From positions 1-40,795 of the forward strand of contig JAUNGQ010000014.1 of assembly GCA_030524285.1 (NCBI GenBank): a stretch of 40,795 nucleotides of DNA. The letters are read 5' to 3'. Within the stretch, counting starts at the first letter, position 1; each line of letters starts with the position of its first letter. A program made the position numbers and the translations under genes. The notes below the pieces were generated by a model. That model was not told the origin of the DNA, did not search any database, and was given only the letters and a program-made list of their open reading frames with translations. The DNA comes from Eubacteriales bacterium (GTDB taxonomy: Bacteria; Bacillota; Clostridia; Oscillospirales; Butyricicoccaceae). This document shows, in pieces, positions 356 to 20,695 of this stretch.

Positions 356-2866
356 TTATCGTGCGCCTACTGCGGCAGCGCCCTTCAGCGCCTTCTTTTC
401 CTTAGACGGACGAAGCAGCATATAGAAGAACAGGATAATAACAGCCAGTGCTACGATAGTGCCGATACCAATGCCGCCACCGGTGAATGCATTTGCAATC
501 TGATAAATAACCAGACCTACCAGATAAGCAAAGCCGCACTGATAGCCAATTGCGAACCAGAACCACTTGCCGTTGTTCATCTCGCGACGGATAGCGCCCA
601 TTGCTGCAAAGCACGGTGCGCACAGCAGGTTAAATGCTAGGAATGCATAGCCGCTTGCCAGTGTGAAGGTTGCAGCCATAGTCTGATATACAGTACCCTC
701 GCCAGCGCCATACAGAATGCCCATGGTGCCAACAATGTTTTCCTTTGCAATCAGGCCGGTGATGGATGCAACGGTTGCCTGCCAGTTGCCGAAGCCAAGC
801 GGTGCGAAGATCCAGCAGATTGCGCTGCCGATGCGTGCCAGAATGGAGCAGTCCATCTGGTCCTCAGCCAGCATACCAAAGCTGCCGTCAACCCAGCCGA
901 AGAAGGACAGGAACCAAACAAGGATCGTGGACAGAAGGATGATCGTGCCAGCCTTCTTGATAAAGGACCAGCCACGCTCCCACATGCTGCGCAGTACAGT
1001 GCCTACTGTCGGCATATGGTAAGCTGGAAGCTCCATAACGAACGGAGCCGGATCGCCTTCAAACATCTTGGTTTTCTTCAGAATGATACCGGAGCAGATA
1101 ATTGCTGCGATACCAAGGAAATAAGCAGAAGTTGCTACCCATGCAGCGCCACCAAAGATAGCGCCGGCAACCATTGCGATAAACGGTGTCTTCGCACCAC
1201 ACGGAATAAAGGTAGTGGTCATAACAGTCATACGGCGGTCACGTTCATTCTCAATGGTACGGGATGCCATGATGCCCGGGATGCCGCAGCCAGTACCGAT
1301 CAGGATCGGAATAAAGGACTTGCCGGACAAGCCGAAACGGCGGAAAATACGGTCCATGATGAAAGCAACACGTGCCATGTAGCCGCATGCTTCCAGAAAT
1401 GCCAGGAAGATAAACAGAACAAGCATCTGCGGAACGAAGCCCAGAACTGCGCCGACACCGCCTACGATACCATCAAGGATCAGGCCGGACAGCCACTCTG
1501 CACAATTCAGGCTGTTCAGAGCGCTTTCAACAAATACCGGAATACCCGGAATCCAGATACCATATTCAGCCGGATCCGGCTCTTCATAGCCGTAGCCAGA
1601 CAGGACTGTCAGTGCATCCTGCAGCTCAGCGCCTGTGGAAACAGTCTCCTCCGTTGCCAGAGTCTCTTCATCCTCCACCAGATAAGTAGCCTCATCGGTA
1701 TCGGAGAACTGTTCTGCAAACTCGATCATAGCAGCCTCTGCTGCTGCCGGGTCATATTCTTCCGACTCAGCGTCCATTGCTTCTTCTACAGCGGAGGTAT
1801 CCACACCGTTTTCAGAAGCGAAGGTAACGAAACCGTTTGCAACAGTCATTGCATCGCCGTATTCTTCGGAAACTTCACCATAATCGGAAGAACCAATACC
1901 GAACAGATGCCAGCCGTCGCCGAATACGCCATCGTTCGCCCAGTCAGTAGCGATGGTACCAACTGTGGTTACAGAAACATAATATACAATAAACATAACA
2001 ACCGCAAAGATCGGCAGCGCCAGAATACGGTTGGTCACGATCCGGTCAATCTTATCTGATGTAGACAGCTTGCCCGCAGACTTCTTTTTGTAGCATCCCT
2101 TAATAATAGATGCAATGTAAATATAACGCTCATTGGTGATGATGGATTCAGCGTCATCATCCTCTTCTGCTTCAGCAGCTGCAATATCTGTCTCGATATG
2201 CGCCATAACGTCAGCTGCAATGTTCAGCTGCTCCAGAACCTTGCTGTCGCGCTCAAAAATCTTGATTGCATACCAGCGCTGCTGCTCTTCCGGCAGATCA
2301 TGCAACGCAGCCTCTTCAATGTGTGCAATGGCGTGTTCAACCGGGCCGCTAAAGGTATGCTGCGGAATCGTCTTTGTATTCTTCGCAGCATCAATTGCAG
2401 CCTCTGCTGCTTCCATAATGCCTCTGCCCTTGAGCGCCGAGATCTCAACAACCTTGCAGCCCAGCTCGCGGGACAGTTCAGCAATATTGATCTGATCGCC
2501 GTTTTTCTCGACGATATCCATCATGTTAACCGCAACAACAACCGGAATGCCAAGCTCTGTCAGCTGGGTTGTCAGGTACAGGTTACGCTCCAGGTTGGTG
2601 CCGTCGATGATGTTCAGTATAGCATCCGGGCGCTCACCCAGCAAGTAATTTCTTGCTACAACTTCTTCCAATGTGTACGGAGACAGCGAGTAAATACCCG
2701 GAAGATCCGTAATGGTAATGCCAGTGTGCTTCTTCAGCTTGCCTTCTTTTTTCTCTACAGTAACGCCCGGCCAGTTGCCGACGAACTGATTGGAACCGGT
2801 CAGGCCATTAAACAGTGTGGTTTTACCACTGTTTGGGTTGCCGGCTAAGGCGATTCTCAACTCCAT
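356..2866 (-). CDS. feoB: Ferrous iron transporter FeoB
   Basis: An 836-residue inner-membrane Fe(II) transporter with an N-terminal G-domain. The G motifs are G1 GNPNSGKT (9-16), G3 DLPG (54-57), G4 NMMD (114-117) and G5-like SALKG (143-147). A helical spacer runs to about residue 275, then the Gate/core membrane region with conserved GCGIPGIMASR and PCGAKTPF segments. An unusual acidic insertion lies at about residues 325-437, between the first membrane helix and the segment that resumes with EWLSGLILDGIVGGVG. It has about 32 Asp/Glu and no Lys or Arg, and should face outside. The site AAAGGAAA precedes ATG. Iron-operator-like palindromes lie in the 122-bp gap upstream. Confidence 0.97.
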   Translation of the reverse strand: MELRIALAGNPNSGKTTLFNGLTGSNQFVGNWPGVTVEKKEGKLKKHTGITITDLPGIYSLSPYTLEEVVARNYLLGERPDAILNIIDGTNLERNLYLTTQLTELGIPVVVAVNMMDIVEKNGDQINIAELSRELGCKVVEISALKGRGIMEAAEAAIDAAKNTKTIPQHTFSGPVEHAIAHIEEAALHDLPEEQQRWYAIKIFERDSKVLEQLNIAADVMAHIETDIAAAEAEEDDDAESIITNERYIYIASIIKGCYKKKSAGKLSTSDKIDRIVTNRILALPIFAVVMFIVYYVSVTTVGTIATDWANDGVFGDGWHLFGIGSSDYGEVSEEYGDAMTVANGFVTFASENGVDTSAVEEAMDAESEEYDPAAAEAAMIEFAEQFSDTDEATYLVEDEETLATEETVSTGAELQDALTVLSGYGYEEPDPAEYGIWIPGIPVFVESALNSLNCAEWLSGLILDGIVGGVGAVLGFVPQMLVLFIFLAFLEACGYMARVAFIMDRIFRRFGLSGKSFIPILIGTGCGIPGIMASRTIENERDRRMTVMTTTFIPCGAKTPFIAMVAGAIFGGAAWVATSAYFLGIAAIICSGIILKKTKMFEGDPAPFVMELPAYHMPTVGTVLRSMWERGWSFIKKAGTIILLSTILVWFLSFFGWVDGSFGMLAEDQMDCSILARIGSAICWIFAPLGFGNWQATVASITGLIAKENIVGTMGILYGAGEGTVYQTMAATFTLASGYAFLAFNLLCAPCFAAMGAIRREMNNGKWFWFAIGYQCGFAYLVGLVIYQIANAFTGGGIGIGTIVALAVIILFFYMLLRPSKEKKALKGAAAVGAR

Positions 2867-2891: not shown

Positions 2892-2943
2892 TTCAGGTTA
2901 TGCTAACAGTTATTTTTATTAGTTATAGCTAATTGCCTGCCAA
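2892..2943 (-). promoter_or_regulatory. Possible internal feoB promoter with two iron-box operators
   Basis: The palindrome ATTAGTTATAGCTAAT (2918-2933) and a degenerate copy TTCAGGTTATGCTAAC (2892-2907) lie between feoA and feoB. A weak promoter TTGGCA (2938-2943), 16 bp, TAATAA (2916-2921) can be drawn on the minus strand. The degenerate operator then starts 8 nt after the -10 box, as at the three stronger iron-box promoters in the window. The -10 box is poor, so feoB may simply be read from the feoA promoter. Confidence 0.45.
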
Positions 2944-2988: not shown

Positions 2989-3207
2989 TTACTTTACCTC
3001 GATCATTTCAGCGTCTTCTTTGCGCAGAGACAGCTCATAGCCGCGCACAGTAACCTCAACCGGATCACCCAGCGGAGCCACCTTGCGGACATAAATTTCG
3101 ACGCCCTTGGTAATGCCCATGTCCATAATACGGCGCTTGACTGCACCAACGCCGGTCAGCTTTACAACCGTAACGGTGCTGCCTACACCTGCTTCCTTTA
3201 GAGTCAT
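2989..3207 (-). CDS. feoA: FeoA domain protein (second of two)
   Basis: A 72-residue SH3-like FeoA protein. The start is placed at the internal ATG at 3207 because AAAGGAG lies correctly before it; the upstream ATG at 3243 lacks a site and overlaps the preceding gene. Family residues include GSTVTVVKLTG, KRRIMDMGITKG and DPVEVTVRGYELSLRKEDA, the pattern of cytosolic FeoA that acts on the FeoB N-domain. It is the second gene of feoA-feoA-feoB, 32 bp after the first. Two different FeoA copies ahead of one FeoB is common in Clostridia; they need not be redundant. Confidence 0.92.
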   Translation of the reverse strand: MTLKEAGVGSTVTVVKLTGVGAVKRRIMDMGITKGVEIYVRKVAPLGDPVEVTVRGYELSLRKEDAEMIEVK

Positions 3208-3239
3208 TGTAACGTTCTCCTTTCCCTGTGAAAATAAGG

Positions 3240-3452
3240 TCAAACCATGATTTTCTGTGCCATTTCCTGGCTAATGCCAACGCGAGTCTCCTTCACATTT
3301 ACAATCAGGTTTCCGCCCATTGTGGAAATAACCTTCACATTGCCGCCGACTACAAAGCCCAAATTCTCAAGGTGCTTCTTCACCTCTGGTTTGCCGCCGA
3401 TTCTCATGATGGTATTTTCCTCTCCCACTGTGGCAAGTGTCAATGGCATCAT
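3240..3452 (-). CDS. feoA: FeoA domain protein (first of two)
   Basis: A 70-residue FeoA-family protein with the SH3-like pattern MPLTLATVGEENTIMRIGG, then VKKHLENLGFVVGG and GGNLIVNVKETRVGISQEMAQKIMV. It differs clearly from the second FeoA. The start is one of two adjacent ATGs after AAAGGAGG. It is the first gene of the feo operon and lies behind a strong promoter and three iron-box palindromes (3479-3642). Its likely role is regulation or assembly of FeoB in the cytosol. Confidence 0.92.
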   Translation of the reverse strand: MMPLTLATVGEENTIMRIGGKPEVKKHLENLGFVVGGNVKVISTMGGNLIVNVKETRVGISQEMAQKIMV

Positions 3453-3478: not shown

Positions 3479-3494
3479 TTTAGCATTTTCTAAC
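3479..3494. promoter_or_regulatory. Iron-box palindrome in the feoA leader
   Basis: TTTAGCATTTTCTAAC matches NTTAG-N6-CTAAN exactly in the eight key bases. It lies in the feoA 5' leader, 39 bp (start to start) from the +3 operator. Confidence 0.6.
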
Positions 3495-3517
3495 ATCATT
3501 GTGAAATGCCAAATTAG

Positions 3518-3533
3518 ATTAGCTCTTGCTAAC
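3518..3533. promoter_or_regulatory. Iron-box operator at the feoA start point
   Basis: ATTAGCTCTTGCTAAC is an inverted repeat that begins 8 nt after the feoA -10 box, about +3 to +18 of the transcript. Repressor binding here would block initiation. Its placement is identical to the operators of the dtxR-like gene and the flavin operon. Confidence 0.72.
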
Positions 3534-3541
3534 CAATTCAT

Positions 3542-3570
3542 ATAATACCCTTTTCTCGGTCTTTTGTCAA
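3542..3570 (-). promoter_or_regulatory. Sigma-A promoter of the feo operon
   Basis: TTGACA (3565-3570 on the plus map, read on minus), a 17-bp spacer and TATTAT (3542-3547). The predicted start is near 3535. Confidence 0.8.
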
Positions 3571-3626
3571 CTCATTTTAAAATATCTTCTGTATTCTTTT
3601 GGCATTTTCAGCATTTTCGCCCACTT

Positions 3627-3642
3627 GTTAGGATGAGCTAAT
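3627..3642. promoter_or_regulatory. Upstream iron-box palindrome before feoA
   Basis: GTTAGGATGAGCTAAT is an exact NTTAG-N6-CTAAN site 57 bp upstream of the -35 box. It could be an auxiliary operator. Confidence 0.6.
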
Positions 3643-5732: not shown

Positions 5733-6638
5733 TTAAAATGTACGAACTACGCCGAGGAACAGGCAGATCGCGAACAGCAGAAGCGCCTTGAGAAGCACCG
5801 GGAACGGTGCATTTCCGTCCTGAATGCTATTGCCATACTGAATGTTCCGCTTCGGGCAGATATCACTGCATTTGCCACAGGAAATGCATTCGCCCATGCG
5901 AAGGCTGCCCTCATCGGTTTCCACACAAACCGGGCAGTTTTTTGCGCATGCCGAGCATCGCGGCAGGCAATTGGAACGGTTCCGGCGGTAGCTTCCAACC
6001 ACCGGCAGCAATGCAAACACCGCACCCATCGGGCAGAGGAATTGACAGAAAAACCGCTCCTTTACCGCCATGCCGATGACAATCAACGCCAGCAGCACTG
6101 CACCGATTGCGTATGCAGCAGTAATTCCTTTCAGAGCTGTCAGCATAGAGAATACATCCCACGGGCTCCAGCCGGGAAGACTTCCATATATGCCCGCTGC
6201 ACATAGAATCACAATTGCAATCAAAATCAGATATTTGATCTTCTGCATGACGCGGACAGCCTTTTCGGGAATCTGCGGCAATTTTTTTCTGATCTTACGC
6301 TGAATCAACTGAGACAACGCATAAATTGCATCCCCCAGTCCACCAAAGGCGCACGCATATCCGCAGAAAAATCTGCCAAATACGATGGTATACAGACAGA
6401 TTACCGCCAGTGTCGTAAAGAATGTATCATATGCAAACGGTTCCCCTGCGCCGATTGCCGTTGCAATCGCCTTAATACCGGAAAAGCAGGAGGTATATAC
6501 CGCCGGTGCAAGCAGGAAGAAAACCAACTGGATAACCGCACGAATACGGCGGCGCACCTTCACGCGCTGCATGGGATTGGCAGGCTTCTTCTTTGCCGCC
6601 TGCCCAGGCATACGCTGTGCGTTTTTTGTCTGTATCAT
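5733..6638 (-). CDS. NapH/NosR-like membrane 4Fe-4S protein
   Basis: A 301-residue integral membrane iron-sulfur protein. Hydrophobic helices lie at about residues 35-52, 73-90, 134-152, 174-192 and 281-298. Two CX3C motifs next to helices, CGYAC (92-96) and CQFLCP (198-203), are the hallmark of NapH/NosR/RdxA-type proteins. A double ferredoxin segment follows: C224, C228, C231, C235 and C251, C254, C257, C261. The family passes electrons between quinols or cytosolic donors and extracytoplasmic acceptors. Encoded with ApbE and FMN-binding proteins, it is the likely transmembrane relay feeding the flavins. Its ATG overlaps the upstream stop (ATGA), so translation is coupled. It is the last gene of the operon. 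Confidence 0.88.
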   Translation of the reverse strand: MIQTKNAQRMPGQAAKKKPANPMQRVKVRRRIRAVIQLVFFLLAPAVYTSCFSGIKAIATAIGAGEPFAYDTFFTTLAVICLYTIVFGRFFCGYACAFGGLGDAIYALSQLIQRKIRKKLPQIPEKAVRVMQKIKYLILIAIVILCAAGIYGSLPGWSPWDVFSMLTALKGITAAYAIGAVLLALIVIGMAVKERFFCQFLCPMGAVFALLPVVGSYRRNRSNCLPRCSACAKNCPVCVETDEGSLRMGECISCGKCSDICPKRNIQYGNSIQDGNAPFPVLLKALLLFAICLFLGVVRTF

Positions 6639-7075
6639 GCTTCTGCTGCTCCTTCCAGTGCCTGCTGAACAGCAGTCTTGATGCCAGTCGAACTGAAGGT
6701 GGCGCCACTGATGGTGTCTACCTCCGGTGTCTGTGCTGTGATGATATTGTCAATAATCTGCTGTGCCTTATCGAGATATGCCGCATCCTCACCGGATGCC
6801 TCTGTAATTTCAATATATGCAATCTTGCCATCTGTCACAGTGACCTGCGCCGTAACTGTACCGCCGAAGCCCTCGCCTTCGCCGATATACACGCCATCCT
6901 GATAGCTGACTGCTCCAGATTCCGCAGCGCTATTCTGTGCATTGATGTCCGCAATTTCCTGCTGATTCGCTTCCATTGCCTGCTGCCACTGGAGGGCATG
7001 TGCCTGATAAAACCCGACTGCGGCAACTGCTACGGCAAGGCTTATCACTCTTGCCCAAAAATCCTGATGTCTCAC
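6635..7075 (-). CDS. Single-domain FMN-binding protein
   Basis: A 146-residue protein with an N-terminal membrane anchor (about residues 8-24) and one extracytoplasmic FMN-binding domain (PF04205). The ApbE flavinylation motif is DTISGAT at 120-126, so Thr126 should carry covalent FMN through a phosphoester. The upstream GEGEGFGGTVTAQVTVTDGKI segment is typical of the family. It resembles the RnfG/NqrC-type electron carrier in reduced form. It lies 14 bp after the four-domain FMN protein and overlaps the 4Fe-4S gene by 4 bp, which suggests it takes electrons from that membrane protein. Confidence 0.9.
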   Translation of the reverse strand: MRHQDFWARVISLAVAVAAVGFYQAHALQWQQAMEANQQEIADINAQNSAAESGAVSYQDGVYIGEGEGFGGTVTAQVTVTDGKIAYIEITEASGEDAAYLDKAQQIIDNIITAQTPEVDTISGATFSSTGIKTAVQQALEGAAEA

Positions 7076-7089
7076 ACCTCAGCCCTCCA

Positions 7090-8760
7090 TTACTTCGTGA
7101 AAGTTCCCAGATTCAAGTCAATCTGAGAGCCTGCTGCGACAATCGCATTGGACGAGCAGGTTGCACCGGATACGGCATCAATACCGCCAAAGCCCTGCTT
7201 GCCCACTGCCTGCGCAGCAACACCGGTAGACTTAGACGTTCCGTTTATTGCCTTCTTGATATAAGTCCAGTTGCTTCCTGATGTCGGGTTGACAACCTCA
7301 ACTCCCGTCAGCTTACGCGTAACCGTTGTGGTGGTATTGCCCTCCGCATCCGTGCTCACGGTTGTCACCTGCTCTACCGTGCACTTGATCTGCAGATCAT
7401 ATGCATCAAACTCCTCGTCCTCATTCGGCGAGCAGATTGCTGATGCGGTATAGGTCAATGTCTCTGTGGTGGTTTGTTCATCCGGCTTCTCCGGATTTTC
7501 TTCATTATTGTCATCCGGCTTGGTGTCCGGTTCGGCGTCATCCGGATCAGTATCCGGCTTTTCCGGTTCCACATAAGTACCTGCCGCCTTGTCCAGCGCT
7601 TCATTCACAGCATCCAGAATACCATTGGAGGAATACGTTGCACCGGAAACAACATCGACATTGGTTGTTGTCTGCTTTTTCAGTATGGTTGCAATCAGCG
7701 TTCTTGCACGTGCAAAGAAGCTCGGTGTTTCATCCTCTGCGGAAACAATGTCGATCGCATCGATTCTGCTATTGAGGATCGTTACTTTCACCGAAATATC
7801 GCCGCCATAGCCTTCGCCTGTACCGGTGTAAGTCCCGTCGGTGTAGGTGCGGTCCGGCTCTGCCGTTGATGTATCGTCATCATCATTGTTGTCGTCCGTA
7901 TCTGTCGTTGTGCCGCCATTTGCAGCAGCAGCCTTATTCAATGCTTTCTTAATTGCATTGAGGATACCGTTGGAGGAATATGTTGCACCGGACACCGCAT
8001 CTACATTCGGGCTTTGTGCGGAAATAACCTTATTGATAACCGCCTTTGCCTTTGCCAGATACGAAGCTGTCTCGCCGGAGGCAGATACAATGGATATCGA
8101 TGCAATTTTACCGCCGGAAATTTTTACGCTAACCGTAATGGTACCGCCATAACCGGATGCAGACCCGGTGTAGGTACCGTCCGCATAGGTGCCGTCTGTA
8201 AATGCATCAGAGGAAGTGCTTCCTCCCCCACCGCCGGTTGAGCCTCCGCCCAGACCGGAACTTCCGGTTGTCTCTTTTACCGTTCCGCCGGATGCCTTTA
8301 CCAATGCGTTTTTAACAGCATTGATAATGCCGTTCGACGAATACGTGGCGCCGGACACGACGTCTACATCCGCACTCTGTGTTTCCAGCATTTTAGAAAT
8401 AATTGTCTTTGCCCGTGCCAGGAAAGACGGTGTTTCGCCAGCAGCGGAAACAATTTCAATTGCAGTCATTTTTCCATCTGCAATGGTTACGCTGACAGTA
8501 ATATCACCGCCAAAGCCAGGGGCTGTGCCGGTATATGTGCCATCCTGATAGGTTACATTTCCCGCAGCGGCACCGGAACCGGCACCTGCTTCCGCAGTAT
8601 TTCCTGCAACCTCTGCCGCCTGTGCAGTTGTGAGTTCGGGAATCTCCTCCAGCACTGCGCCGCCGGATACAATGCCCCATGCTGCCAGCGCCACCACGGC
8701 AATGCCCGGTACAAGACGGCGGACAAACTCATCCACCGATTTATGATAAAAAATACGCAT
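7090..8760 (-). CDS. Membrane-anchored protein with four FMN-binding domains
   Basis: A 556-residue protein with an N-terminal anchor (about residues 13-32) and four extracytoplasmic FMN-binding domains. Flavinylation motifs DxVSGAT place the modified threonines at T139, T260, T375 and T534. Linkers are Gly/Ser-rich (165-185), Asp/Asn-rich (283-303) and Pro/Asp/Glu-rich (397-430), as in surface proteins that span the wall. The fourth domain is a variant type and resembles the C-terminal domain of the SLH protein at 11315-14821. Such multi-flavinylated proteins are proposed electron wires in Firmicutes. The site AAAGGAGG precedes ATG. It is 30 bp after apbE. Confidence 0.92.
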   Translation of the reverse strand: MRIFYHKSVDEFVRRLVPGIAVVALAAWGIVSGGAVLEEIPELTTAQAAEVAGNTAEAGAGSGAAAGNVTYQDGTYTGTAPGFGGDITVSVTIADGKMTAIEIVSAAGETPSFLARAKTIISKMLETQSADVDVVSGATYSSNGIINAVKNALVKASGGTVKETTGSSGLGGGSTGGGGGSTSSDAFTDGTYADGTYTGSASGYGGTITVSVKISGGKIASISIVSASGETASYLAKAKAVINKVISAQSPNVDAVSGATYSSNGILNAIKKALNKAAAANGGTTTDTDDNNDDDDTSTAEPDRTYTDGTYTGTGEGYGGDISVKVTILNSRIDAIDIVSAEDETPSFFARARTLIATILKKQTTTNVDVVSGATYSSNGILDAVNEALDKAAGTYVEPEKPDTDPDDAEPDTKPDDNNEENPEKPDEQTTTETLTYTASAICSPNEDEEFDAYDLQIKCTVEQVTTVSTDAEGNTTTTVTRKLTGVEVVNPTSGSNWTYIKKAINGTSKSTGVAAQAVGKQGFGGIDAVSGATCSSNAIVAAGSQIDLNLGTFTK

Positions 8761-8790
8761 GTGAATCCTCCTTTTTTGTGAAACCAGCGT

Positions 8791-9888
8791 TTAATCCTTT
8801 GTAATCACTGTGACATCTGCATCACAGGTAAAGGAATCTGCAATCCCCTCTGTCACGTGAACAGTTCCATCTTCCGTAGCGAGCACTGCGTCAAATTCCT
8901 CTGCATGCTGTTTCCAGTATGCAGCAGCTTCATCGACACCCATAATAAACAGCGAAGTGGATAACCCATCTGCCAACGTACCGTCCTTGCTGACAATTGT
9001 CGCTGAAGTCACGCCGCTGTCTGCTGGTTTACCGGTTTTGGGGTCAACAATATGATGATAGGTCACGCCATCCTGTTCAAAATACCGTTCATAGCCGCCG
9101 GAGGTAATGACTGCACAGTCCTCTACTTCCAGAATGCCAAGTATATCCTCCGTATTATCCGGATCCTGAATACCAACACGCCATTTACTGCCATCTGTCT
9201 TTGATCCAAGCAGATGAACATTGCCGCCAAGGGAAACCATACCGCTGGTCACGCCGTCCTTTTGAAAGATTTCCATAATTCTGCCAGAGGTAAAGCCCTT
9301 TGCAATGCCGCCGAGGTCAATTTTCTGACTGTTCCCCAGCGTGATTGTCCGGCTGTCTGCATCCCAGTCCAGCTGATCTGCGCCGACGTGTGTGAGGATT
9401 TCTGCGAGGATGTCGTCCGATGGAACCTGATATTCCTCTGTTGTAAAGCCCCATGCCTCCATCAGCGGCAGGACGGTGATATCAAATGCGCCTCCGGTGC
9501 TGTCATACAGCTCCAGTGCCTTATCGATCATGACGCTGGTATCCTCCGAAAGTGTTGCCGCCCCGGTTGCATTCAGCTTGGAAATTTCGCTGTCCGCCTC
9601 TCCGATGGATAGCAATGCATCCAAACGTTCGATTTCTGCCACGGCATCATCAACGGCTTCCTGTGCATGCTCACCATAGGCTGTCACAGTCATATAGGTA
9701 TCCATCGCAAATACTTCCTGGCTCACTGGCTCATCTACTGCCATTACCGCATTTTCCGTGGCGCTGCCATTTGCTGTGACAGAACTTCCGGTATCCCGTG
9801 GTGTCGAAGCTGTATCAGTACCACAGCCCGCCAAAAGCAAGCTGCAAGCCAGTGCAGCTGTAAGCCATATTTTACTTTTGAATTTCAT
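8791..9888 (-). CDS. apbE: FAD:protein FMN transferase ApbE (lipoprotein)
   Basis: A 365-residue extracytoplasmic enzyme that moves FMN from FAD onto a Thr of target proteins in a Mg-dependent reaction. A signal peptide ends in the lipobox LLAGC (Cys22 lipidated). ApbE motifs follow: MDTYMTVTAYG near the start of the mature part, LGGIAKGF, VSLGGNVHLLG, and YHHIVDPKTGKPADSGVTSATI near the C-terminus. The start is moved to the ATG at 9888, which has AAGGGAG; the ATG at 9903 has none. Its substrates are very probably the two FMN-binding proteins encoded directly downstream and the SLH protein. A 275-bp gap with a repeat remnant separates it from the Gx gene. Confidence 0.93.
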   Translation of the reverse strand: MKFKSKIWLTAALACSLLLAGCGTDTASTPRDTGSSVTANGSATENAVMAVDEPVSQEVFAMDTYMTVTAYGEHAQEAVDDAVAEIERLDALLSIGEADSEISKLNATGAATLSEDTSVMIDKALELYDSTGGAFDITVLPLMEAWGFTTEEYQVPSDDILAEILTHVGADQLDWDADSRTITLGNSQKIDLGGIAKGFTSGRIMEIFQKDGVTSGMVSLGGNVHLLGSKTDGSKWRVGIQDPDNTEDILGILEVEDCAVITSGGYERYFEQDGVTYHHIVDPKTGKPADSGVTSATIVSKDGTLADGLSTSLFIMGVDEAAAYWKQHAEEFDAVLATEDGTVHVTEGIADSFTCDADVTVITKD

Positions 9889-9921
9889 GTGTGCTCCCTT
9901 CATTATACAATCCCCTACAGC

Positions 9922-10024
9922 TATTCTGAAACATGCTGCGTTTTCACTCCTTACAGGTATTCTAAAACCATGCCGAACTTGCTTTATGGAAGCAAGTTTT
10001 CGTCATGATAATCGTTTCAGAATA
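9922..10024. repeat. Inverted-repeat element in the Gx-apbE gap
   Basis: TATTCTGAAAC (9922-9932) and GTTTCAGAATA (10014-10024) are perfect 11-bp inverted arms. Between them lies a 9-bp stem with a 5-nt loop (9976-9998). An imperfect direct copy of the left arm (ACAGGTATTCTAAAACCATG) starts near 9953. It could fold in the operon mRNA or be a small mobile-element remnant. Confidence 0.5.
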
Positions 10025-10057
10025 ACCTGCACCAAGGTCCACCACCGCTGCGCGGCG

Positions 10058-10172
10058 GTTCCCCTCTCTCAGACCAGGGATCTGTCAGCACAGCTGACTG
10101 AGGGAGGTTTACCGCATTTGTCTTCTGCACAATGGTTGCAATTGATACAGTAGCTTTACTTTTTCATTCCCT
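10058..10172. repeat. Diverged copy of the terminal 188-bp repeat
   Basis: From about 10058 the sequence follows the first ~115 bp of the tandem repeat at 39462 base by base with scattered changes. Shared blocks include CTGTCAGC, GCTGACTGAGGGAG, TTGCA.TTGATAC and TTTT..A.TCCCT. It lies inside the flavin operon, and the stop codon of the Gx gene (10164-10166) falls in its end. Confidence 0.75.
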
Positions 10173-10670
10173 CATTTTATCCAGCCCAGGCAGGCGGCTG
10201 AGCATCCAACTGCCAAGTACGCCAATCACGGCGCCTGCTGCTACGCCGGAAACCCACAATGCAAGCAGATACCATGCAACGGCGCTTGTCTGCATGACCA
10301 GCATTGCAACAAAAATTTGTCCGACATTATGCATGACGCCGCCCGCCACACTGACGGTCAGCGGCTGGAATTTTCCTGTTTTCTTCAGTAAGATCATGAC
10401 AATACCGGAAAGCAAACCGCCAGCAAGCGAATACCACAGACTGATAACCGTTCCGAACAAAATCGATGTCAAGGCAATCCGAACCAGATTGATCACCATA
10501 GCAGGCTTTGCACCCATACGATACAAAGCCACCAATACAACAAGGTTGGTTAAACCAAGCTTCATACCCGGTACGGCAAAAAATGCCGGAATCATTGCTT
10601 CGATATAGCTGAGTACCAGCGCCAGTGCCGCAAGCATACCATATAATGCCAAATGCTTTGTTTTATTCAT
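10164..10670 (-). CDS. Gx transporter family membrane protein (EetB-like)
   Basis: A 168-residue polytopic protein of the Gx / heptaprenyl diphosphate synthase component I family (PF07456). About five hydrophobic helices carry glycine-rich turns (GMKLGLTNLVVLVALYRMG, GGLLSGIVM, SVAGGVMHNVGQ). It resembles small ECF-type S components and often sits next to a NusG_II protein and flavin-transfer genes, as in the eet loci of Listeria-type extracellular electron transfer. A role in moving a flavin or quinone precursor across the membrane is inference. It starts 11 bp after the NusG_II gene. The last residues (MRE) and stop may come from the adjacent repeat. Confidence 0.82.
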   Translation of the reverse strand: MNKTKHLALYGMLAALALVLSYIEAMIPAFFAVPGMKLGLTNLVVLVALYRMGAKPAMVINLVRIALTSILFGTVISLWYSLAGGLLSGIVMILLKKTGKFQPLTVSVAGGVMHNVGQIFVAMLVMQTSAVAWYLLALWVSGVAAGAVIGVLGSWMLSRLPGLDKMRE

Positions 10671-10681
10671 ATTACATCCTC

Positions 10682-11053
10682 TTATGTCGCAATGATATCC
10701 ACGCCGTTATCCTCTGTTTCCCCTTCGATAGTCACAGTGACCTGATTTGGCAGACAGATAATGCTTTCTCCGGCATACTGGATTGTACCCTGATGGACAC
10801 AGAGCTGATCCGGACAGCTGGCATCTTTCAGCCGGGCTGTGCCGTTTTCAATCACCAGCTCATTGGTGCCTCCAATGCCCTCGATCGTATAGGTGGTATC
10901 TTTCCTTAGCGGAAATTCTGCAATCTGCTCACCGCCAGCACGGACAACAACTATTGCGCCATTCGAACGGGTCAGCAGAAGCCCGACACCCAGCACGACA
11001 GCGACAGCCAGAAACACTGCAAGCAGCAAAACATCCTGTTTTTTCAGTTTCAT
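10682..11053 (-). CDS. NusG domain II membrane protein (EetA-like)
   Basis: A 123-residue protein with one N-terminal membrane helix (about residues 7-27) and an extracytoplasmic NusG_II domain (PF07009). Conserved cysteines C80 and C85 (CPDQLC) and C100 (ICLPN) match the family pattern CPxxxC...CLPN and may form a redox pair or bind a cofactor. The start is set at the ATG at 11053 because GGGAGG lies six bases upstream; longer in-frame starts overlap the operator region. It is first in the flavin operon and directly behind two iron-box operators. Confidence 0.85.
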   Translation of the reverse strand: MKLKKQDVLLLAVFLAVAVVLGVGLLLTRSNGAIVVVRAGGEQIAEFPLRKDTTYTIEGIGGTNELVIENGTARLKDASCPDQLCVHQGTIQYAGESIICLPNQVTVTIEGETEDNGVDIIAT

Positions 11054-11083
11054 GCGCCGCCTCCCTTTGATCTCTCTCATTTT

Positions 11084-11099
11084 GTTAGTATTTACTAAC
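11084..11099. promoter_or_regulatory. Iron-box palindrome in the flavin-operon leader
   Basis: GTTAGTATTTACTAAC has perfect 7-bp arms (GTTAGTA/TACTAAC) and matches the 16-bp iron-box pattern. It lies 25 bp downstream (start to start) of the +3 operator in the mRNA leader. Confidence 0.7.
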
Positions 11100-11108
11100 T
11101 TTTGCAAA

Positions 11109-11124
11109 GTTAGTTCCTCCTAAT
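11109..11124. promoter_or_regulatory. Iron-box operator at the flavin-operon start point
   Basis: GTTAGTTCCTCCTAAT begins 8 nt after the -10 box, the same position as in the feoA and dtxR-like promoters. A degenerate copy, TTAAGCTTCTGCTAAC, lies upstream of the -35 box at 11181-11196. Confidence 0.68.
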
Positions 11125-11132
11125 CAATGATT

Positions 11133-11162
11133 AGAATATCATATTCAGGCAAATACTGTCAA
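11133..11162 (-). promoter_or_regulatory. Promoter of the flavin operon
   Basis: TTGACA (11157-11162), 18 bp, TATTCT (11133-11138) on the minus strand. The predicted start is near 11126. Confidence 0.72.
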
Positions 11163-11233
11163 TGCTTCCATCGCCAAAATTTAAGCTTCTGCTAACTCTT
11201 TTTTCAACAAAATGCTCAACTGCGCAAAGCTGG

Positions 11234-11267
11234 ACGAAAGAGCCCGACTGGAAAACCAGCCGGGCTC
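11234..11267 (-). terminator. Terminator after the SLH protein gene
   Basis: A GC-rich stem (GAGCCCG 11240-11246 with CGGGCTC 11261-11267, extended by CTGG/CCAG) followed by TTTCG on the minus strand. The T-run is short, so its strength is uncertain. Confidence 0.55.
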
Positions 11268-11314
11268 GTAAAAGGAGCGATATTCAGGATATCCTGAAAG
11301 GAAATGGATCTGTT

Positions 11315-14300
11315 TTACTTAGACAGCTCAGCCTTGACAGCTTCCTTTACTGCTGCACTGGTGATAGTTGCACTGGATACAGTATCAACAGAATCAATCG
11401 TTGATGCATCCTTGCCTACCAGAGCACTGACCATACCAATACTTGGATTTGCCTTGCTGCCATTCATCGCCTTATTAAAATAACTGGAAGCGTTCGGCTT
11501 GCTCTCAGCCGGAACAGTAGAATCATCATAGCTTACTTCAGTGATGACACCTTCCAGTGTAGTCAGGGTAAGCTTGAAATCATAATTTTCCCACTCATCA
11601 TCTTCTGAAGTATTGACAACGCTGACGGTAATATCCTTGGTTTCAGGCTTCGGGCTTGTGTCGAAATTAACGGTCAGATCATAATAACCGGTAGCTGTAA
11701 TAACGATCTCATACTGATTATCTGCCGCTACGCTTGCCTCCGGAATTGTGATCGTACCGTCTTCATTTACAACTGTTGTAGGACGGCGACCAGATGCTGC
11801 ATAGCTTGTGCCATTGACGCTGACAGAGGAAATTGCCTTGATATAATCTGCAAGCGAAATGGTTGCGCCTTCAGTTGAAGTAATTGCCAGCGAACCGTCA
11901 GCGGCAGCCTGTGCCGGGGCATTGGTTTTCACTTCAAAGGTTGTAGTCAGCGGAGCATACTTGCCGCTTGTATCAGAAACCGTAACTGTGTATACCTTGT
12001 TTGTCATGTTAAGGCTGCTGATAAGCAAACCGCCTGCGTACATGGTAACGTTCTGTCCATCAATAGCATACTCTGGCGTAAATCCGTCTGGCAATTCCGA
12101 TACTGTAATATCGACCGAACCATACTTTAAGTCGTTTAAGTCCTGATCTTCTACAGAAACAGAACCCTCGAACTTAATCGGGACATAAACATCGCCGGTA
12201 TTTACCTTATACACGCCTTCACTGGTGTAGAAGGTTACAGAAGTAATCTTATGACCCATCATAGCTGCATAATGTTCAGAAGAGGTGGGGCAGCCATGTA
12301 CAGCATCAGTGAATCCGGTGCACCATGCAAGCTCACCATTCTTCCAAATATTTTCCAGAGCACGCAGGCCATAGCTATTGCCATCCTCGGTGGTGATATA
12401 TGCACCATAGGTTGTAGCGTCCTTGGTCAGAATGCCTTCCTCTTTTACACTTCCATCTCTTTCAGTTGCAGTATAGAAACCGCTAACATGCATCTCATAG
12501 TCGCCATAGTTAGAAGAAGTCATCAGTTCAACCGTAACTTTATCGCTGCTTACTTCCTGTACTTCACCCTTTACTTCGCTGACGGTGTAGGTTGTACCTG
12601 CATCATCTGTCGAAGCGGTTACAGACTTATAGTTTGCCGGAGCGGAATCCAGCTTGCAGTAGGCATAATCACCTGCGGTTGCCAAAGCTGCTGCATCCTC
12701 AACCTCAGCACCCTTCAAGGTAGATACCTGTGCAGAAACCGGATAAGTTACACCATACACTACGCTGCCATCTTCTGCATGGTAAGTGTTGCCTGCCAGA
12801 GAGCCAGTAGACTTGTCCTTGGTTGCAGAAGTGAATACATCTACCTCAACATCATTTGTAATGTCAGCTGCATAGAACTTGTTATACGGAATGTTCATCA
12901 ACACATACGATTCCTCTTCCGGAACTGTAACCGTTACATCGGTATAACCAGTAGCGGAAATCACAACCTCGTACTTGCCATCCTGTGCTTCTGCCTTTGC
13001 CGGAATGGTGATGGAGCCGTCTTCATTTACAACGATTGTTGCACCACGGCCAGACGCTGCATACTTCGTACCATTGATGGTTACGGAAGAAACCGCCTTA
13101 ATGTAAGCTGCAAAAGCATCATCTGTTACAGTATCGCCACTCTTGACAACAGACATGTTGTCATCAGCAGCCTTTGCCGGTGCATCAACTTTCAGCTCAA
13201 AGGTAGCGGTCAGATCCGCATACTTGCCGCTCTTGTCGGAAACAGTCAGGGTATAGCTGCCGTTCTTTGCATCTGTACTATAAGTCAGCTTGCCGTTTTC
13301 TACCTTCGCGCCGTCCAGACCCTTCACGCTGTATTCAGCTTCATAATCCTTCGGCAGTTCCGGCAGGGTAACGGTAGTCTCACCATCCGCTACCATTGCA
13401 GACTCTACAGCTACAGAGCCTTCAAACTTCACCGGAACATATACTTCCATCGGAATCTCGTAGATGCCCTTGCTGGTGTAGTAGGTAACCTTCTGAATGG
13501 TCTGACCCATCATAGACTTGTAATGCTCAGAATCTGTCGGGCAGTTGTGGACAGCGTCCGTGAAACCGGTGCACCATGCAAGATCCGTAACTCTCCAAAT
13601 ATTTTCGAGATGGCGCAGGCCGTAGTCGTTCTCATCTGTGCTGATAATAACACCGTAAACCTTGTCGGTGGATGTATCAATCTCATCAAAGCCTTCAATG
13701 ACCAGCTCATAGTCGCCATAGTTTGAGGATGTCATCAGATCTGCGGTTGCCCCGTCAACCTTCTGCGCAGTACCCTGAATCTTACCGAAGGAAATGCTGC
13801 CGTCTTCGTTCACGGTTGCTTCCTTGTAGTATTCCGGTGTTTCGCTCAGTGCATAATATGCATATGTCTCATTTTCAAACAGTGCATCTACACCCGTATA
13901 GGTTGTTGTATTGGTCTGGCCACGATTGGTAACGGTAATTTCAACAGAATCATCATCTGTAACCTGCTTCTTGTCAGCCAACGCAGACTTGTTGATCTTT
14001 ACCGGGAAAGAAATACCATCAATCTGGGAGCCATCGCTGTTTACATGGTAGGAGCCGCCAGCCAGTGTGCCGGTTCTCGTCTTGCTCTTGGTTGCAGAGG
14101 AGAATACATCTACCTTTGTATCATTTCTTACGTCAGATGCATAGAACTCGTCATACGGAATGTTCATCATAACGTATACAGACTGATCCTGCTCCGGAAC
14201 GCACTCTTTCAGGAGCGTAACAGCTTCTGCACGGGTGATTGGATTCTTGGTACGCAGGGTCATGTCATCCGCATAGCCAACCATGTAGCCCTTTTCAACC

Positions 14301-14821
14301 GTTGCTGCTACATACGGCACTGCCCAGCTGCTGATGTTGTCAACGTCAGTGTAGCCTTTTGCCTTGAGCTGTGCACGCAGTTCGTCGTTTTTATCGGTGC
14401 TTTCAACCGCAATATTATTCAGCTCGCATACCATAACGCAAACCTGTTCACGGGTTACATCACCGTTCGGATCCCACTGCGTATCGTTCAGGCCAACCAT
14501 AACCTTGGACTTTACGATGGTTTCAATCTGCTTGTAGTACCAGCTGTCCTTATTCAGATCGGTATAATTGGAAATATCAGCCTTCTCCGTATAGCCCATC
14601 ATCTGGTTTACAACAGTTGCGATTTCGGCACGGGTGATGGTGTTGCTCGGCTTAAAGCTTCCATCCGGATAGCCTACCAGATAGCCGTTATCAATGAATT
14701 CCTGAATCTGCTTTTCAGCCCAGTGTCCATTGTAATCCGCCGCCATGGCAGTGCTTCCCAGCATCATACCAGTTGCCGCAGCCATGCACATAGCGCAGGC
14801 TGTGATTTTTTTCATTTTCAC
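11315..14821 (-). CDS. SLH surface protein with two Tp47-like modules and a C-terminal FMN-binding domain
   Basis: An 1168-residue secreted protein. The signal peptide ends near residue 28 (AMA-AD). Three SLH domains (about 30-77, 86-135, 157-206) should anchor it to wall polymers. Two long homologous modules follow (about 216-635 and 639-1058). Each starts with NIPY, contains SSATK/TSATK, LENIW, LAWCTGFTDAVH and YVPxKFEGS, and ends in an Ig-like ISATGY segment. They resemble Treponema Tp47 (penicillin-binding Tp47 domains), though I call this family only with moderate confidence. The C-terminal domain (1060-1168) is a variant FMN-binding domain with DTVSSAT at 1146-1152. It lies between the iron repressor and the flavin operon, so it is a likely outermost electron acceptor or iron/heme receptor. 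Confidence 0.8.
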   Translation of the reverse strand: MKMKKITACAMCMAAATGMMLGSTAMAADYNGHWAEKQIQEFIDNGYLVGYPDGSFKPSNTITRAEIATVVNQMMGYTEKADISNYTDLNKDSWYYKQIETIVKSKVMVGLNDTQWDPNGDVTREQVCVMVCELNNIAVESTDKNDELRAQLKAKGYTDVDNISSWAVPYVAATVEKGYMVGYADDMTLRTKNPITRAEAVTLLKECVPEQDQSVYVMMNIPYDEFYASDVRNDTKVDVFSSATKSKTRTGTLAGGSYHVNSDGSQIDGISFPVKINKSALADKKQVTDDDSVEITVTNRGQTNTTTYTGVDALFENETYAYYALSETPEYYKEATVNEDGSISFGKIQGTAQKVDGATADLMTSSNYGDYELVIEGFDEIDTSTDKVYGVIISTDENDYGLRHLENIWRVTDLAWCTGFTDAVHNCPTDSEHYKSMMGQTIQKVTYYTSKGIYEIPMEVYVPVKFEGSVAVESAMVADGETTVTLPELPKDYEAEYSVKGLDGAKVENGKLTYSTDAKNGSYTLTVSDKSGKYADLTATFELKVDAPAKAADDNMSVVKSGDTVTDDAFAAYIKAVSSVTINGTKYAASGRGATIVVNEDGSITIPAKAEAQDGKYEVVISATGYTDVTVTVPEEESYVLMNIPYNKFYAADITNDVEVDVFTSATKDKSTGSLAGNTYHAEDGSVVYGVTYPVSAQVSTLKGAEVEDAAALATAGDYAYCKLDSAPANYKSVTASTDDAGTTYTVSEVKGEVQEVSSDKVTVELMTSSNYGDYEMHVSGFYTATERDGSVKEEGILTKDATTYGAYITTEDGNSYGLRALENIWKNGELAWCTGFTDAVHGCPTSSEHYAAMMGHKITSVTFYTSEGVYKVNTGDVYVPIKFEGSVSVEDQDLNDLKYGSVDITVSELPDGFTPEYAIDGQNVTMYAGGLLISSLNMTNKVYTVTVSDTSGKYAPLTTTFEVKTNAPAQAAADGSLAITSTEGATISLADYIKAISSVSVNGTSYAASGRRPTTVVNEDGTITIPEASVAADNQYEIVITATGYYDLTVNFDTSPKPETKDITVSVVNTSEDDEWENYDFKLTLTTLEGVITEVSYDDSTVPAESKPNASSYFNKAMNGSKANPSIGMVSALVGKDASTIDSVDTVSSATITSAAVKEAVKAELSK

Positions 14822-14864
14822 TTCGCGTACATCCTTTCATGTGTGAAGTATTGATTTTCGATAT

Positions 14865-14880
14865 GTTAGGATATGCTAAC
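14865..14880. promoter_or_regulatory. Iron-box palindrome before the SLH gene
   Basis: GTTAGGATATGCTAAC is the best site in the window; its arms extend to 10 bp (14860-14869 and 14876-14885). Unlike the others it lies 44 bp before the start codon, far downstream of the only good promoter. Confidence 0.7.
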
Positions 14881-14885
14881 ATATC

Positions 14886-14938
14886 GGCAAAAAAATTGTG
14901 TGGAAACTGCTTTCCACGCAATAAATTTTTTGGTTCAA
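14886..14938 (-). terminator. Intrinsic terminator between the dtxR-like and SLH genes
   Basis: Stem GCGTGGAAA/TTTCCACAC with a 4-nt loop (14898-14919) is flanked by A-rich and T-rich tracts that lengthen it, and the T7 tract follows on the minus strand. It is probably bidirectional in form. It lies downstream of the SLH promoter, so SLH transcripts must read through it. Confidence 0.7.
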
Positions 14939-14942
14939 ATTG

Positions 14943-14971
14943 ATTATACCGCGCGAGATATTAGTTGTCAA
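14943..14971 (-). promoter_or_regulatory. Consensus promoter ahead of the SLH gene
   Basis: TTGACA (14966-14971), 17 bp, TATAAT (14943-14948), a perfect sigma-A match, just past the repressor gene stop. The predicted start is near 14936, leaving a leader of about 115 nt that contains the terminator hairpin and the iron box. Confidence 0.75.
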
Positions 14972-14989
14972 CAACTTTTAAGGAAAATA

Positions 14990-15367
14990 TTAGTTGAATG
15001 TAACTTCACGCAACTGCATACTATCGATACATTTCTGAGGCAATTCCGGCAGCAACATGCACGCTGCGTCCATTGCCTGCGGCATTGTCAGCTCAAGTCC
15101 TGTCTGCACCAGACATTCCGCCAATTTATGTACATACACCAGATACTGTTCTGCAGTCCGCCACCCGCTCTCTGTCAAACGGACTTTTCCATACGGCTGT
15201 TGATCCACCAACTCTTTGTCACGAAAAACACCTATTATACGTGCTACAGACGCCTTTTTTACGCCAAGTTTGTTCGCAATTTCTGTCAGCCGCATCTCTT
15301 CATGATGAACAGAAGACATCTGATACATACATAATAAATATTTTAAGTGTGTACCTGTGAATTCCAT
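14990..15367 (-). CDS. DtxR/MntR-type metal-dependent repressor
   Basis: A 125-residue regulator with an N-terminal winged helix (about residues 5-68: HLKYLLCMYQMS, RLTEIANKLGVKKASVARIIGVFRDKELV, YGKVRLTESG) and a short helical dimerisation/metal domain. It lacks the C-terminal SH3 domain of DtxR, as in MntR-size proteins. The metal region is odd: HKL near residue 80 and Cys103 fit, but the usual ExCxxEH ligands read DAACMLLPE. The GGAGGG site is strong. Its own promoter carries the same operator as feo and the flavin operon, so autoregulation and control of both are likely. Which metal it senses cannot be told from sequence. Confidence 0.8.
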   Translation of the reverse strand: MEFTGTHLKYLLCMYQMSSVHHEEMRLTEIANKLGVKKASVARIIGVFRDKELVDQQPYGKVRLTESGWRTAEQYLVYVHKLAECLVQTGLELTMPQAMDAACMLLPELPQKCIDSMQLREVTFN

Positions 15368-15404: not shown

Positions 15405-15420
15405 GTTAGTTCGTGCTAAT
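15405..15420. promoter_or_regulatory. Iron-box operator at the repressor gene start point
   Basis: GTTAGTTCGTGCTAAT begins 8 nt after the -10 box. A looser 17-bp relative, TTTAGTCATTCACTAAC (15477-15493), lies upstream of the -35 box. Confidence 0.7.
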
Positions 15421-15608: not shown

Positions 15609-16952
15609 TCAGACGACTCCTTTTTTGCGCATCACATTTTTGGCGGCCAAAACCGCATAGAGCACAGCTATACCTTCCGAAATCCACATCGAGTACCATA
15701 CGCTTTCAATACCAAAACAGGACGCAAATAGATATGCCAACGGTACAAAAACAATCAGCTGACGCAGCGCCGTGCCTGACATATTGACAAATCCATTTCC
15801 AAGGCCAGATATGGCATATCCAAGAATCATCGTGACAGAGGCAAACACAAAGGTTACAGAAATAATCCGTAGCGCCGGCACGCCGATGCTTAGCATGTCT
15901 TCACTCGGCGAAAACAGTCCAAGCAGTCCGGACGGGAATACCATAAAAACTACTGTTGCGAGCAGGGATATGCCGATAGCAATGGGTAGAACCGTCCGTA
16001 TGGCTTGCCGAATACGAGAATAATTTCGGGAACCATAGCAAAATCCTACAATAGGAATGGCTGCCTGACCCAATCCGTTCATTGGCATGAACAGGAAATT
16101 TTGCAACTTATAGTACACGCCGAAGAAGGCAACAGCCGTAGACGAAAACGGGATCAAAATCGCATTGATTGCCGCCACCATCATGCTGCCGATGGCCTGT
16201 GTGATGATTGTTGGAAACCCCACCATATAAATCTGTGCTAAAACAGCCTTATCTACTTTATAATTCTTACATGTTATTTTTACCACCGGATTTTTGACTT
16301 TATTAAGCCAAATGGCGGTGACAGCGCTGACACACTGCCCAATGACAGTCGCAATTGCCGCACCGCGAACACCCATAGGCGGGATACCCAGCCATCCAAA
16401 AATCAAAACCGGGTCTAACACGATGTTGGTGATGGCTCCAGCAATCAACGATACCATACTATAAAATGTATCTCCGACAGCTTGTAAAAACCGCTGGAAC
16501 ATGGTACTAACCAGACTTCCAACGCAAAAAATCATGCAAACGGAGAGATACTGTATGCTGTACTCCGCAATGATCGCATCCTCTGTAAAGGCATGGACAA
16601 AAATCCGTGTACATGTAAAGCCTAAAATCATGAAAACCGCTGTACTGATAAGAGAAAGCAGCAGACCTGTTGTGGCAACATGTTCAATCATTTCGGTATT
16701 TTTTGCACCAATATTTTTGGAAAGCACTGCGTTTACGCCGACACCGGTGCCGACACCAACAGCAATCATCAAAAGCTGTACAGGAAATACCAGTGATGTC
16801 GCGGCCAGTGCATCCTCACTCAATCTGGCTACAAAAACGCTGTCCACAATATTATACAGTGATTGCACCAGCAGCGAAATCATCAGCGGTAAAGACATAT
16901 TTATCACCAGCTTTGGCATAGGCATGGTTTCAAGCTTATTTGTATGTTCCAT
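15609..16952 (-). CDS. MATE family efflux transporter
   Basis: A 447-residue polytopic protein of the normal MATE length, with about twelve hydrophobic helices in two related halves. Family features include the N-terminal MPMPKLVINMSLPLMISLLVQSLYNIVDSVFVARL, PVQLLMIAVGVGTGVGVNAVLSKNIGA and GFPTIITQAIGSMMVAAIN. MATE proteins export cationic drugs or metabolites using a Na+ or H+ gradient; the substrate here is unknown. GGAGA precedes ATG. It lies between the ABC exporter and the iron repressor, with gaps on both sides, so it is probably its own unit. A link to iron or siderophore export is not supported by an iron box. Confidence 0.92.
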   Translation of the reverse strand: MEHTNKLETMPMPKLVINMSLPLMISLLVQSLYNIVDSVFVARLSEDALAATSLVFPVQLLMIAVGVGTGVGVNAVLSKNIGAKNTEMIEHVATTGLLLSLISTAVFMILGFTCTRIFVHAFTEDAIIAEYSIQYLSVCMIFCVGSLVSTMFQRFLQAVGDTFYSMVSLIAGAITNIVLDPVLIFGWLGIPPMGVRGAAIATVIGQCVSAVTAIWLNKVKNPVVKITCKNYKVDKAVLAQIYMVGFPTIITQAIGSMMVAAINAILIPFSSTAVAFFGVYYKLQNFLFMPMNGLGQAAIPIVGFCYGSRNYSRIRQAIRTVLPIAIGISLLATVVFMVFPSGLLGLFSPSEDMLSIGVPALRIISVTFVFASVTMILGYAISGLGNGFVNMSGTALRQLIVFVPLAYLFASCFGIESVWYSMWISEGIAVLYAVLAAKNVMRKKGVV

Positions 16953-17082
16953 CGTATTCTCCTCTCATCGTATCAACAAAAAATGCGCAAAGACCCAAAA
17001 AGTTTGCACATTTTATAAAATTGTCGCGTCTTCAATCATTTCTCTGTTTTATTGTCTATAAGAGCAGTCTGCCGACGATATC

Positions 17083-20626: not shown

Positions 20627-20695
20627 CTTCTTCTGTCATTTGCGGCAATTCTATCCGCGTTCCTTTCTATCATATATGCATGTATGCCGCTTGTG

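What the first reader, a model, noticed from the sequence alone, without database searches (positions are those of the whole stretch)
5733..15367. Iron-repressed extracytoplasmic flavin electron chain ending in an S-layer flavoprotein
One operon encodes NusG_II, Gx, ApbE, a four-FMN protein, a one-FMN protein and a NapH-like 4Fe-4S membrane protein. Next to it is an SLH protein with its own FMN-binding domain. Six canonical flavinylation motifs (T139, T260, T375, T534; T126; T1152) could place flavins from the membrane to the S-layer. The parts resemble Listeria-type extracellular electron transfer, but Ndh2, PplA and the demethylmenaquinone genes are absent here, and the NapH-like protein and SLH end-point differ. 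Sharing iron boxes with feoAAB suggests reductive iron uptake: surface Fe(III) reduction feeding FeoB.
Basis: inference. Interest (0 to 1): 0.85.

Follow-up and report, generated by a model that had tools for sequence, protein, structure and literature searches.

The report
Iron-starvation flavin wire to cell surface
A gut Clostridia relative of Butyricicoccus carries genes for a chain of flavin-bearing proteins running from the membrane to the cell surface, under the same predicted iron switch as its ferrous-iron importer, which suggests a widespread way for such bacteria to reduce and take up scarce iron.

The parts
14990..15367 (-). HTH regulator, 125 aa, DtxR/MntR-like winged helix, probably autoregulated
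   Evidence: Pfam Fe_dep_repress 26.4 bits (cut-off 26); found next to slh homologs in the genus; alignment
15406..15419 (.). TTAGN6CTAA box before hth, 10 bp downstream of the predicted -10
11315..14821 (-). S-layer protein, 1168 aa: apparent signal peptide, SLH x3, two Tp47-fold modules (about 214-470, 638-890; the first was modelled), two Shr-like_HID, C-terminal FMN_bind with T1152 (DTVSSAT)
14866..14879 (.). TTAGN6CTAA box before slh
   Evidence: predicted TTGACA-17-TATAAT promoter at 14971-14943
11085..11123 (.). two TTAGN6CTAA boxes (11085-11098, 11110-11123) before nusG_II
10682..11107 (-). NusG_II protein (start probably further downstream)
   Evidence: Pfam PF07009 1.5e-30
10164..10670 (-). 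Gx / PF07456, family of the FAD-exporting ECF-S subunit EetB
   Evidence: PMC9973259 passages
8791..9903 (-). ApbE, FMN transferase, with an apparent lipobox
   Evidence: Pfam 4.8e-87; sequence
7090..8760 (-). four-FMN protein, motifs at T139, T260, T375, T534
   Evidence: phmmer to CbFMN4 domain 1, PDB 8p2b, 1.9e-11
6635..7075 (-). one-FMN protein, motif T126
5733..6638 (-). NapH-like membrane Fe-S protein, conserved CxxxC pairs and two 4Fe-4S motifs
   Evidence: Fer4_5 1.5e-12; NCBIfam NapH 2.3e-22, below that model's cut-off; invariant Cys in 8 sequences
3480..3641 (.). three TTAGN6CTAA boxes before feoA (3480, 3519, 3628)
3240..3452 (-). FeoA 1
2989..3243 (-). FeoA 2
2919..2932 (.). TTAGN6CTAA box before feoB
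356..2866 (-). FeoB, 836 aa
   Evidence: TIGR00437 539 bits, above cut-off

Best explanation
An iron-starvation-induced reductive iron-uptake module. Under iron limitation a DtxR-type repressor leaves TTAG-N6-CTAA operators, and slh, the flavin operon and feoAAB are made together. Gx takes part in FAD export, and ApbE attaches FMN to the extracytoplasmic proteins. Electrons, probably from reduced ferredoxin because menA was not found in the genus, pass through the NapH-like protein to the one-FMN protein, the four-FMN protein and the FMN domain of the S-layer protein. There, next to the Tp47-fold modules, Fe(III) or chelated iron is reduced, and Fe(II) enters through FeoB. Shown here: gene content, five canonical and one variant motif, folds of two modelled domains, shared boxes, conservation in many loci, no menA hit. 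Inferred: flavinylation, direction and order of electron flow, ferredoxin as donor, iron as acceptor, repression by iron.
For: Boxes: 8 of 16 genome sites lie in this 12.5 kb. Three boxes (hth, nusG_II, feoA) begin 10 bp downstream of a predicted -10, as for a repressor. In 80 named NapH loci there are 104 sites in 1.157 Mb, against 1-12 for each other spacing and 2-39 for permuted motifs. They precede 30 of 48 surface-protein frames, 4 of 4 feoA1, 6 of 7 feoB and 10 of 60 apbE, but 0 of 77 napH and 0 of 40 gx. Outside the genus, 13 of 19 surface-protein clusters at 50% identity have a box, as do 13 of 20 feoB genes sampled from 20 other genomes of the order. The consensus overlaps the DtxR operator TTAGGTTAGCCTAACCTAA (PMC7762939 passage). 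Chain: ApbE in 62, FMN_bind in 78, Gx in 41, surface protein in 50 of 80 loci. No reductase domain in the 69 long FMN frames scanned. menA 0 of 8.
Against: No expression, flavinylation or ferric-reduction data. feoB is in only 6 of 80 related loci. 31 of 80 loci have no exact box, among them one locus of the window's own genus (L075). Several other box sites in this genome lie by genes that are not obviously iron-related (AraC, MFS, MATE, ABC). Seven of the 15 genomes with the module lack a strong napH-like homolog. The SLH FMN motif lacks the Gly. NapH itself costs Fe-S clusters. Which regulator binds the box is unknown: the genome has four hits to the DtxR N-terminal family.
Confidence: 0.6

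Rival explanations
1. The surface protein captures a specific iron source, heme or an iron-binding protein, through its Tp47-fold and Shr-like_HID modules, and the flavin chain reduces that bound iron to release it.
For: Shr-like_HID in the window protein (1.8e-20) and in 17 of 53 surface proteins. A large module is the most recurrent non-FMN surface partner seen (50 of 80 loci).
Against: HID-like domains also occur widely as Ig-like modules (recalled). No NEAT domain in the SLH protein. Only weak PDB similarity to Shr (E 0.066). No heme transporter or heme oxygenase among the window proteins scanned with Pfam (not every window gene was scanned).
Confidence: 0.15
2. The chain is a redox outlet (dissimilatory extracellular electron transfer) that is merely linked to iron status, disposing of surplus reductant on iron or other acceptors.
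For: It resembles Listeria EET in FAD export and ApbE. Multi-FMN wires are proposed for longer distances (PMC8238504 section 18). A fermenter without menA could profit.
Against: Boxes shared with feo, in repressor-like positions, imply expression when iron is scarce, the wrong time for iron respiration. No fumarate-reductase-type domain in the 69 long FMN frames scanned, nor among the 25 commonest of 166 families in 128 neighbour frames.
Confidence: 0.15
3. The box answers to manganese or another metal, and the chain serves that metal or general stress.
For: The HTH neighbour scores weakly to MntR models (33.9 bits against a cut-off of 153). A ZIP transporter lies by one genomic box. DtxR and MntR sites are related (recalled).
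Against: Boxes precede feoA/feoB in the window, in related loci and in 13 of 20 other feoB genes.
Confidence: 0.07

Closest known systems
NapH-like and multi-flavinylated gene clusters with SLH/FIVAR proteins (Meheust et al. 2021, PMC8238504)
   Same: NapH-like Fer4_5 protein with a separate FMN_bind protein, ApbE, a multi-FMN protein and a cell-wall protein
   Different: In the passages I read, iron links are given for MsrQ-, PepSY-, DsbD-, NQR/RNF-like and P19 clusters, not NapH-like ones; 'Feo' occurs only in a reference title, DtxR and IdeR not at all. Here a feo/DtxR-type regulon and a Tp47-fold partner are added.
Listeria-type extracellular electron transfer (PplA, FmnB, EetB, FmnA, Ndh2)
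   Same: ApbE, a PF07456 EetB-family FAD exporter subunit, extracytoplasmic FMN proteins
   Different: NapH-like in place of an Ndh2/demethylmenaquinone entry, menA undetected in the genus, four-FMN wire, S-layer end-point, feo-type operators
CbFMN4 and SaFMN3 multi-FMN proteins (PMC10339131; PDB 8p2b, 8p2a)
   Different: Studied there as recombinant proteins; SLH, S-layer, NapH and Feo are not mentioned in the text
Tp47 of Treponema pallidum (PDB 1o75)
   Different: 17% identity; no Pfam Tp47 hit in the window protein; anchored by SLH and fused to FMN_bind

Membership tests
NapH-like flavinylation system (Meheust 2021) | PF12801 protein in a cluster with FMN_bind/ApbE | tested here: met
NapH-like flavinylation system (Meheust 2021) | FMN_bind on a separate protein (the minority type there) | tested here: met
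Multi-flavinylated proteins | more than one FMN_bind domain with D-x-x-[ST]-G-A-[ST] | tested here: met
   four domains, four canonical motifs
Multi-flavinylated proteins | covalent FMN | not testable with these tools
   needs in-gel fluorescence or mass spectrometry
Listeria-type EET | ApbE and PF07456 EetB homolog | tested here: met
   PMC9973259 passages
Listeria-type EET | PplA | tested here: not met
   four-FMN protein 36 bits against a PplA cut-off of 325; rest of the genome not searched with that model
Listeria-type EET | demethylmenaquinone route | tested here: not met
   menA 0 of 8 genus genomes, 7 at least 96% complete; control rings in 9 of 14
Listeria-type EET | Ndh2 | not tested
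   none among the locus genes scanned; genome not searched for it
FMN_bind (SLH C-terminal domain) | Pfam score above cut-off and fold | tested here: met
FMN_bind (SLH C-terminal domain) | canonical flavinylation motif with Gly | tested here: not met
   DTVSSAT; A and T invariant in 23 domains, Gly free
Tp47 fold | structure like 1o75 | tested here: met
Tp47 Pfam families PF14888/PF14889 | score above cut-off | tested here: not met
   no hit in the window protein
DtxR-type iron regulon | operator before iron genes | tested here: met
DtxR-type iron regulon | repression by iron | not testable with these tools
   needs expression data
Heme-binding surface proteins (Shr/NEAT) | heme-binding domain | tested here: inconclusive
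   HID domains present, no NEAT hit

The most novel reading that the evidence does not exclude
The Tp47-fold module of these surface proteins is itself an ApbE substrate: a new covalent-flavin domain in which the FMN is carried by the invariant Thr of D-x-x-[ST]-S-A-T (D25 and T31 are two of only four columns invariant in 43 sequences). The window's chain would then hold eight flavins, and Tp47-like proteins would belong to a family of iron-starvation surface redox proteins.
Probability: 0.15. Interest if true: 0.85.

Novelty: new variant of a known kind. Interest (0 to 1): 0.6.

Why it matters
Meheust 2021 calls the role of multi-flavinylated clusters 'generally unclear' (section 18). A feo-shared operator in 49 of 80 related loci, many from gut and rumen genomes, gives a testable role, iron acquisition, to a widespread kind of flavin wire, here in a genus where menA was not found. 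It also ties the Tp47 fold to an iron-linked redox system.

Tried and rejected
Listeria EET membership: rejected on PplA and menA. Fumarate or urocanate reductase end-point: no such domain in the 69 FMN frames of at least 380 aa that were scanned, of 165 FMN frames outside the surface proteins. The neighbour scan took 128 of 155 unassigned frames (150-700 aa) from 46 loci and shows only the 25 commonest of 166 families, so singletons are not excluded. HTH as the sensing regulator: a His that I had taken for a metal ligand (recalled) is not conserved among the six orthologous sequences, so I do not claim that it reads iron. Foldseek alone gave no match at E <= 0.001 for the Tp47-like module; the link rests on VIA-align, a weak profile hit to 1o75 (E 0.55) and co-occurring Pfam Tp47 domains. 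PF14888 in an even draw of the class: 0 of 291 genomes over the cut-off, one weak match below it. Literature searches for iron-regulated NapH/FMN clusters in gut Clostridia gave nothing direct in their listings; most subscription papers are not held. Two Treponema papers searched for Tp47 do not mention it. One part of PMC11334425 was read and not used further.

Rows dropped: 48 of 128 NapH relatives were not returned by the tool. Genes with under 250 bases upstream were left out. One search also left out the six loci that belong to the window's genus. A3 holds 41 near-full domain copies plus the window's two; one search had counted 93 domain hits at a looser threshold. A2 holds 14 of the 19 domains first collected. 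The feoB test took 20 genomes of 95 with a match, from 18 genera, chosen from the top of the list.
Full report
What is there. The window is one contig of a 73%-complete genome. On the minus strand lie an HTH gene, an SLH protein gene, a six-gene flavin operon (nusG_II, gx, apbE, four-FMN, one-FMN, napH-like) and, after a CpXC gene on the other strand and two more genes, feoA, feoA and feoB. The genome holds seven FMN_bind matches, six of them here and one in an Rnf cluster, and two ApbE genes.

Conservation. Strong napH-like homologs (E below 1e-80) occur in 8 of the 12 genus genomes searched, the window's own included, and all 8 also encode the module. The module was found in 15 of the 99 genomes searched; the seven others lack a strong napH-like homolog. 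Of these, one is incomplete and keeps nusG_II beside the protein (L013), one has ApbE beside it (L057) and one has FMN_bind inside it (L059). Two genus members, G003 and G011, have neither. A named scan found 128 relatives of the NapH-like protein and returned 80 loci, with titles from Clostridia and Coriobacteriia. Of these 80, 78 have FMN_bind, 62 ApbE, 41 Gx, 37 NusG_II, 50 a surface protein with the module and 6 FeoB. Many loci are short, so these are lower bounds; of 52 loci of at least 12 kb, 39 have the module, 45 ApbE and 4 FeoB.

Regulation. TTAG-N6-CTAA overlaps the DtxR operator TTAGGTTAGCCTAACCTAA (PMC7762939 passage). In the window it occurs 8 times, at feoB, feoA (three), nusG_II (two), slh and hth; the genome has 16, and the pattern read backwards 48. 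At hth, nusG_II and feoA a box begins 10 bp downstream of a predicted -10, although promoter matches are only moderately above chance (37 against 25.8, sd 4.8). In the 80 loci the motif with spacing 6 occurs 104 times, other spacings 1-12 times each, permuted motifs 2-39 times each; the preferred form is GTTAGCNNNNGCTAAC. It lies within -250..+150 of the open start of 30 of 48 surface frames, 4 of 4 feoA1, 1 of 4 feoA2, 6 of 7 feoB, 3 of 3 hth, 10 of 60 apbE, 4 of 36 nusG_II and 13 of 154 FMN frames, and none of 77 napH or 40 gx frames, which are mostly internal to operons. Without the window's genus and after clustering at 50% identity, 13 of 19 surface-protein clusters keep a box, against 0-5 for permuted motifs and 0-1 for other spacings. 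In 20 other genomes of the order (18 genera), 13 feoB genes have it within 700 bases upstream, against 0-4 and 0-3 of 20 for the two kinds of control. Against this reading: 31 of 80 loci lack an exact box, one locus of the genus (L075) among them, and other box sites in this genome lie by AraC, MFS, MATE, ABC and DUF3793 genes as well as a ZIP transporter.

Mechanism. Gx is the family of EetB, the FAD-exporting ECF-S subunit of Listeria (PMC9973259 passages). The NapH-like protein has conserved cysteines for two 4Fe-4S clusters and two CxxxC pairs. menA was not found in 8 genus genomes, 7 of them at least 96% complete; other quinone routes were not tested. I therefore propose ferredoxin, NapH-like, one-FMN, four-FMN, SLH FMN domain, Fe(III), then FeoB. 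The order within the chain, the donor and the acceptor are inferred. That NapH needs iron itself argues against a mere iron-sparing role.

Known or new. Meheust 2021 (abstract, passages of sections 9-13, 15-17 and others, section 18 in full) described NapH-like and multi-FMN clusters with SLH or FIVAR proteins, and iron links for other types. Searches listed no paper that I recognised as describing a feo/DtxR-type regulon for the NapH type or the Tp47-fold partner. I rate it a new variant of a known kind.

Noticed in passing
window 356-2866: FeoB has a long acidic stretch (about residues 300-440) between its first membrane segment and the Gate domain. Open frames of the operon-linked feoB are 837-838 aa in G000, G004 and G010; other feoB frames vary widely, many near 670-790, some also near 840.
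   Followed up: no
G000:C17:113019-113728 (L063): Three further boxes flank a DUF3793 gene and a HAD gene; DUF3793 is also found in 2 of 128 neighbour frames of related NapH loci.
   Followed up: partly
G000:C2:11944 (L064): A box lies by a ZIP metal transporter gene.
   Followed up: partly
window 15609-21136: MATE exporter, a pair of ABC half-transporters and a small HTH gene with a weak DtxR-family hit stand just upstream of the hth/slh unit.
   Followed up: no
window 21306-21971: Rubrerythrin gene near the cluster.
   Followed up: no
L059:3-3011 (-): SLH protein with two canonical FMN_bind domains plus two Tp47-like modules in one chain: a clearer S-layer flavoprotein than the window's.
   Followed up: partly
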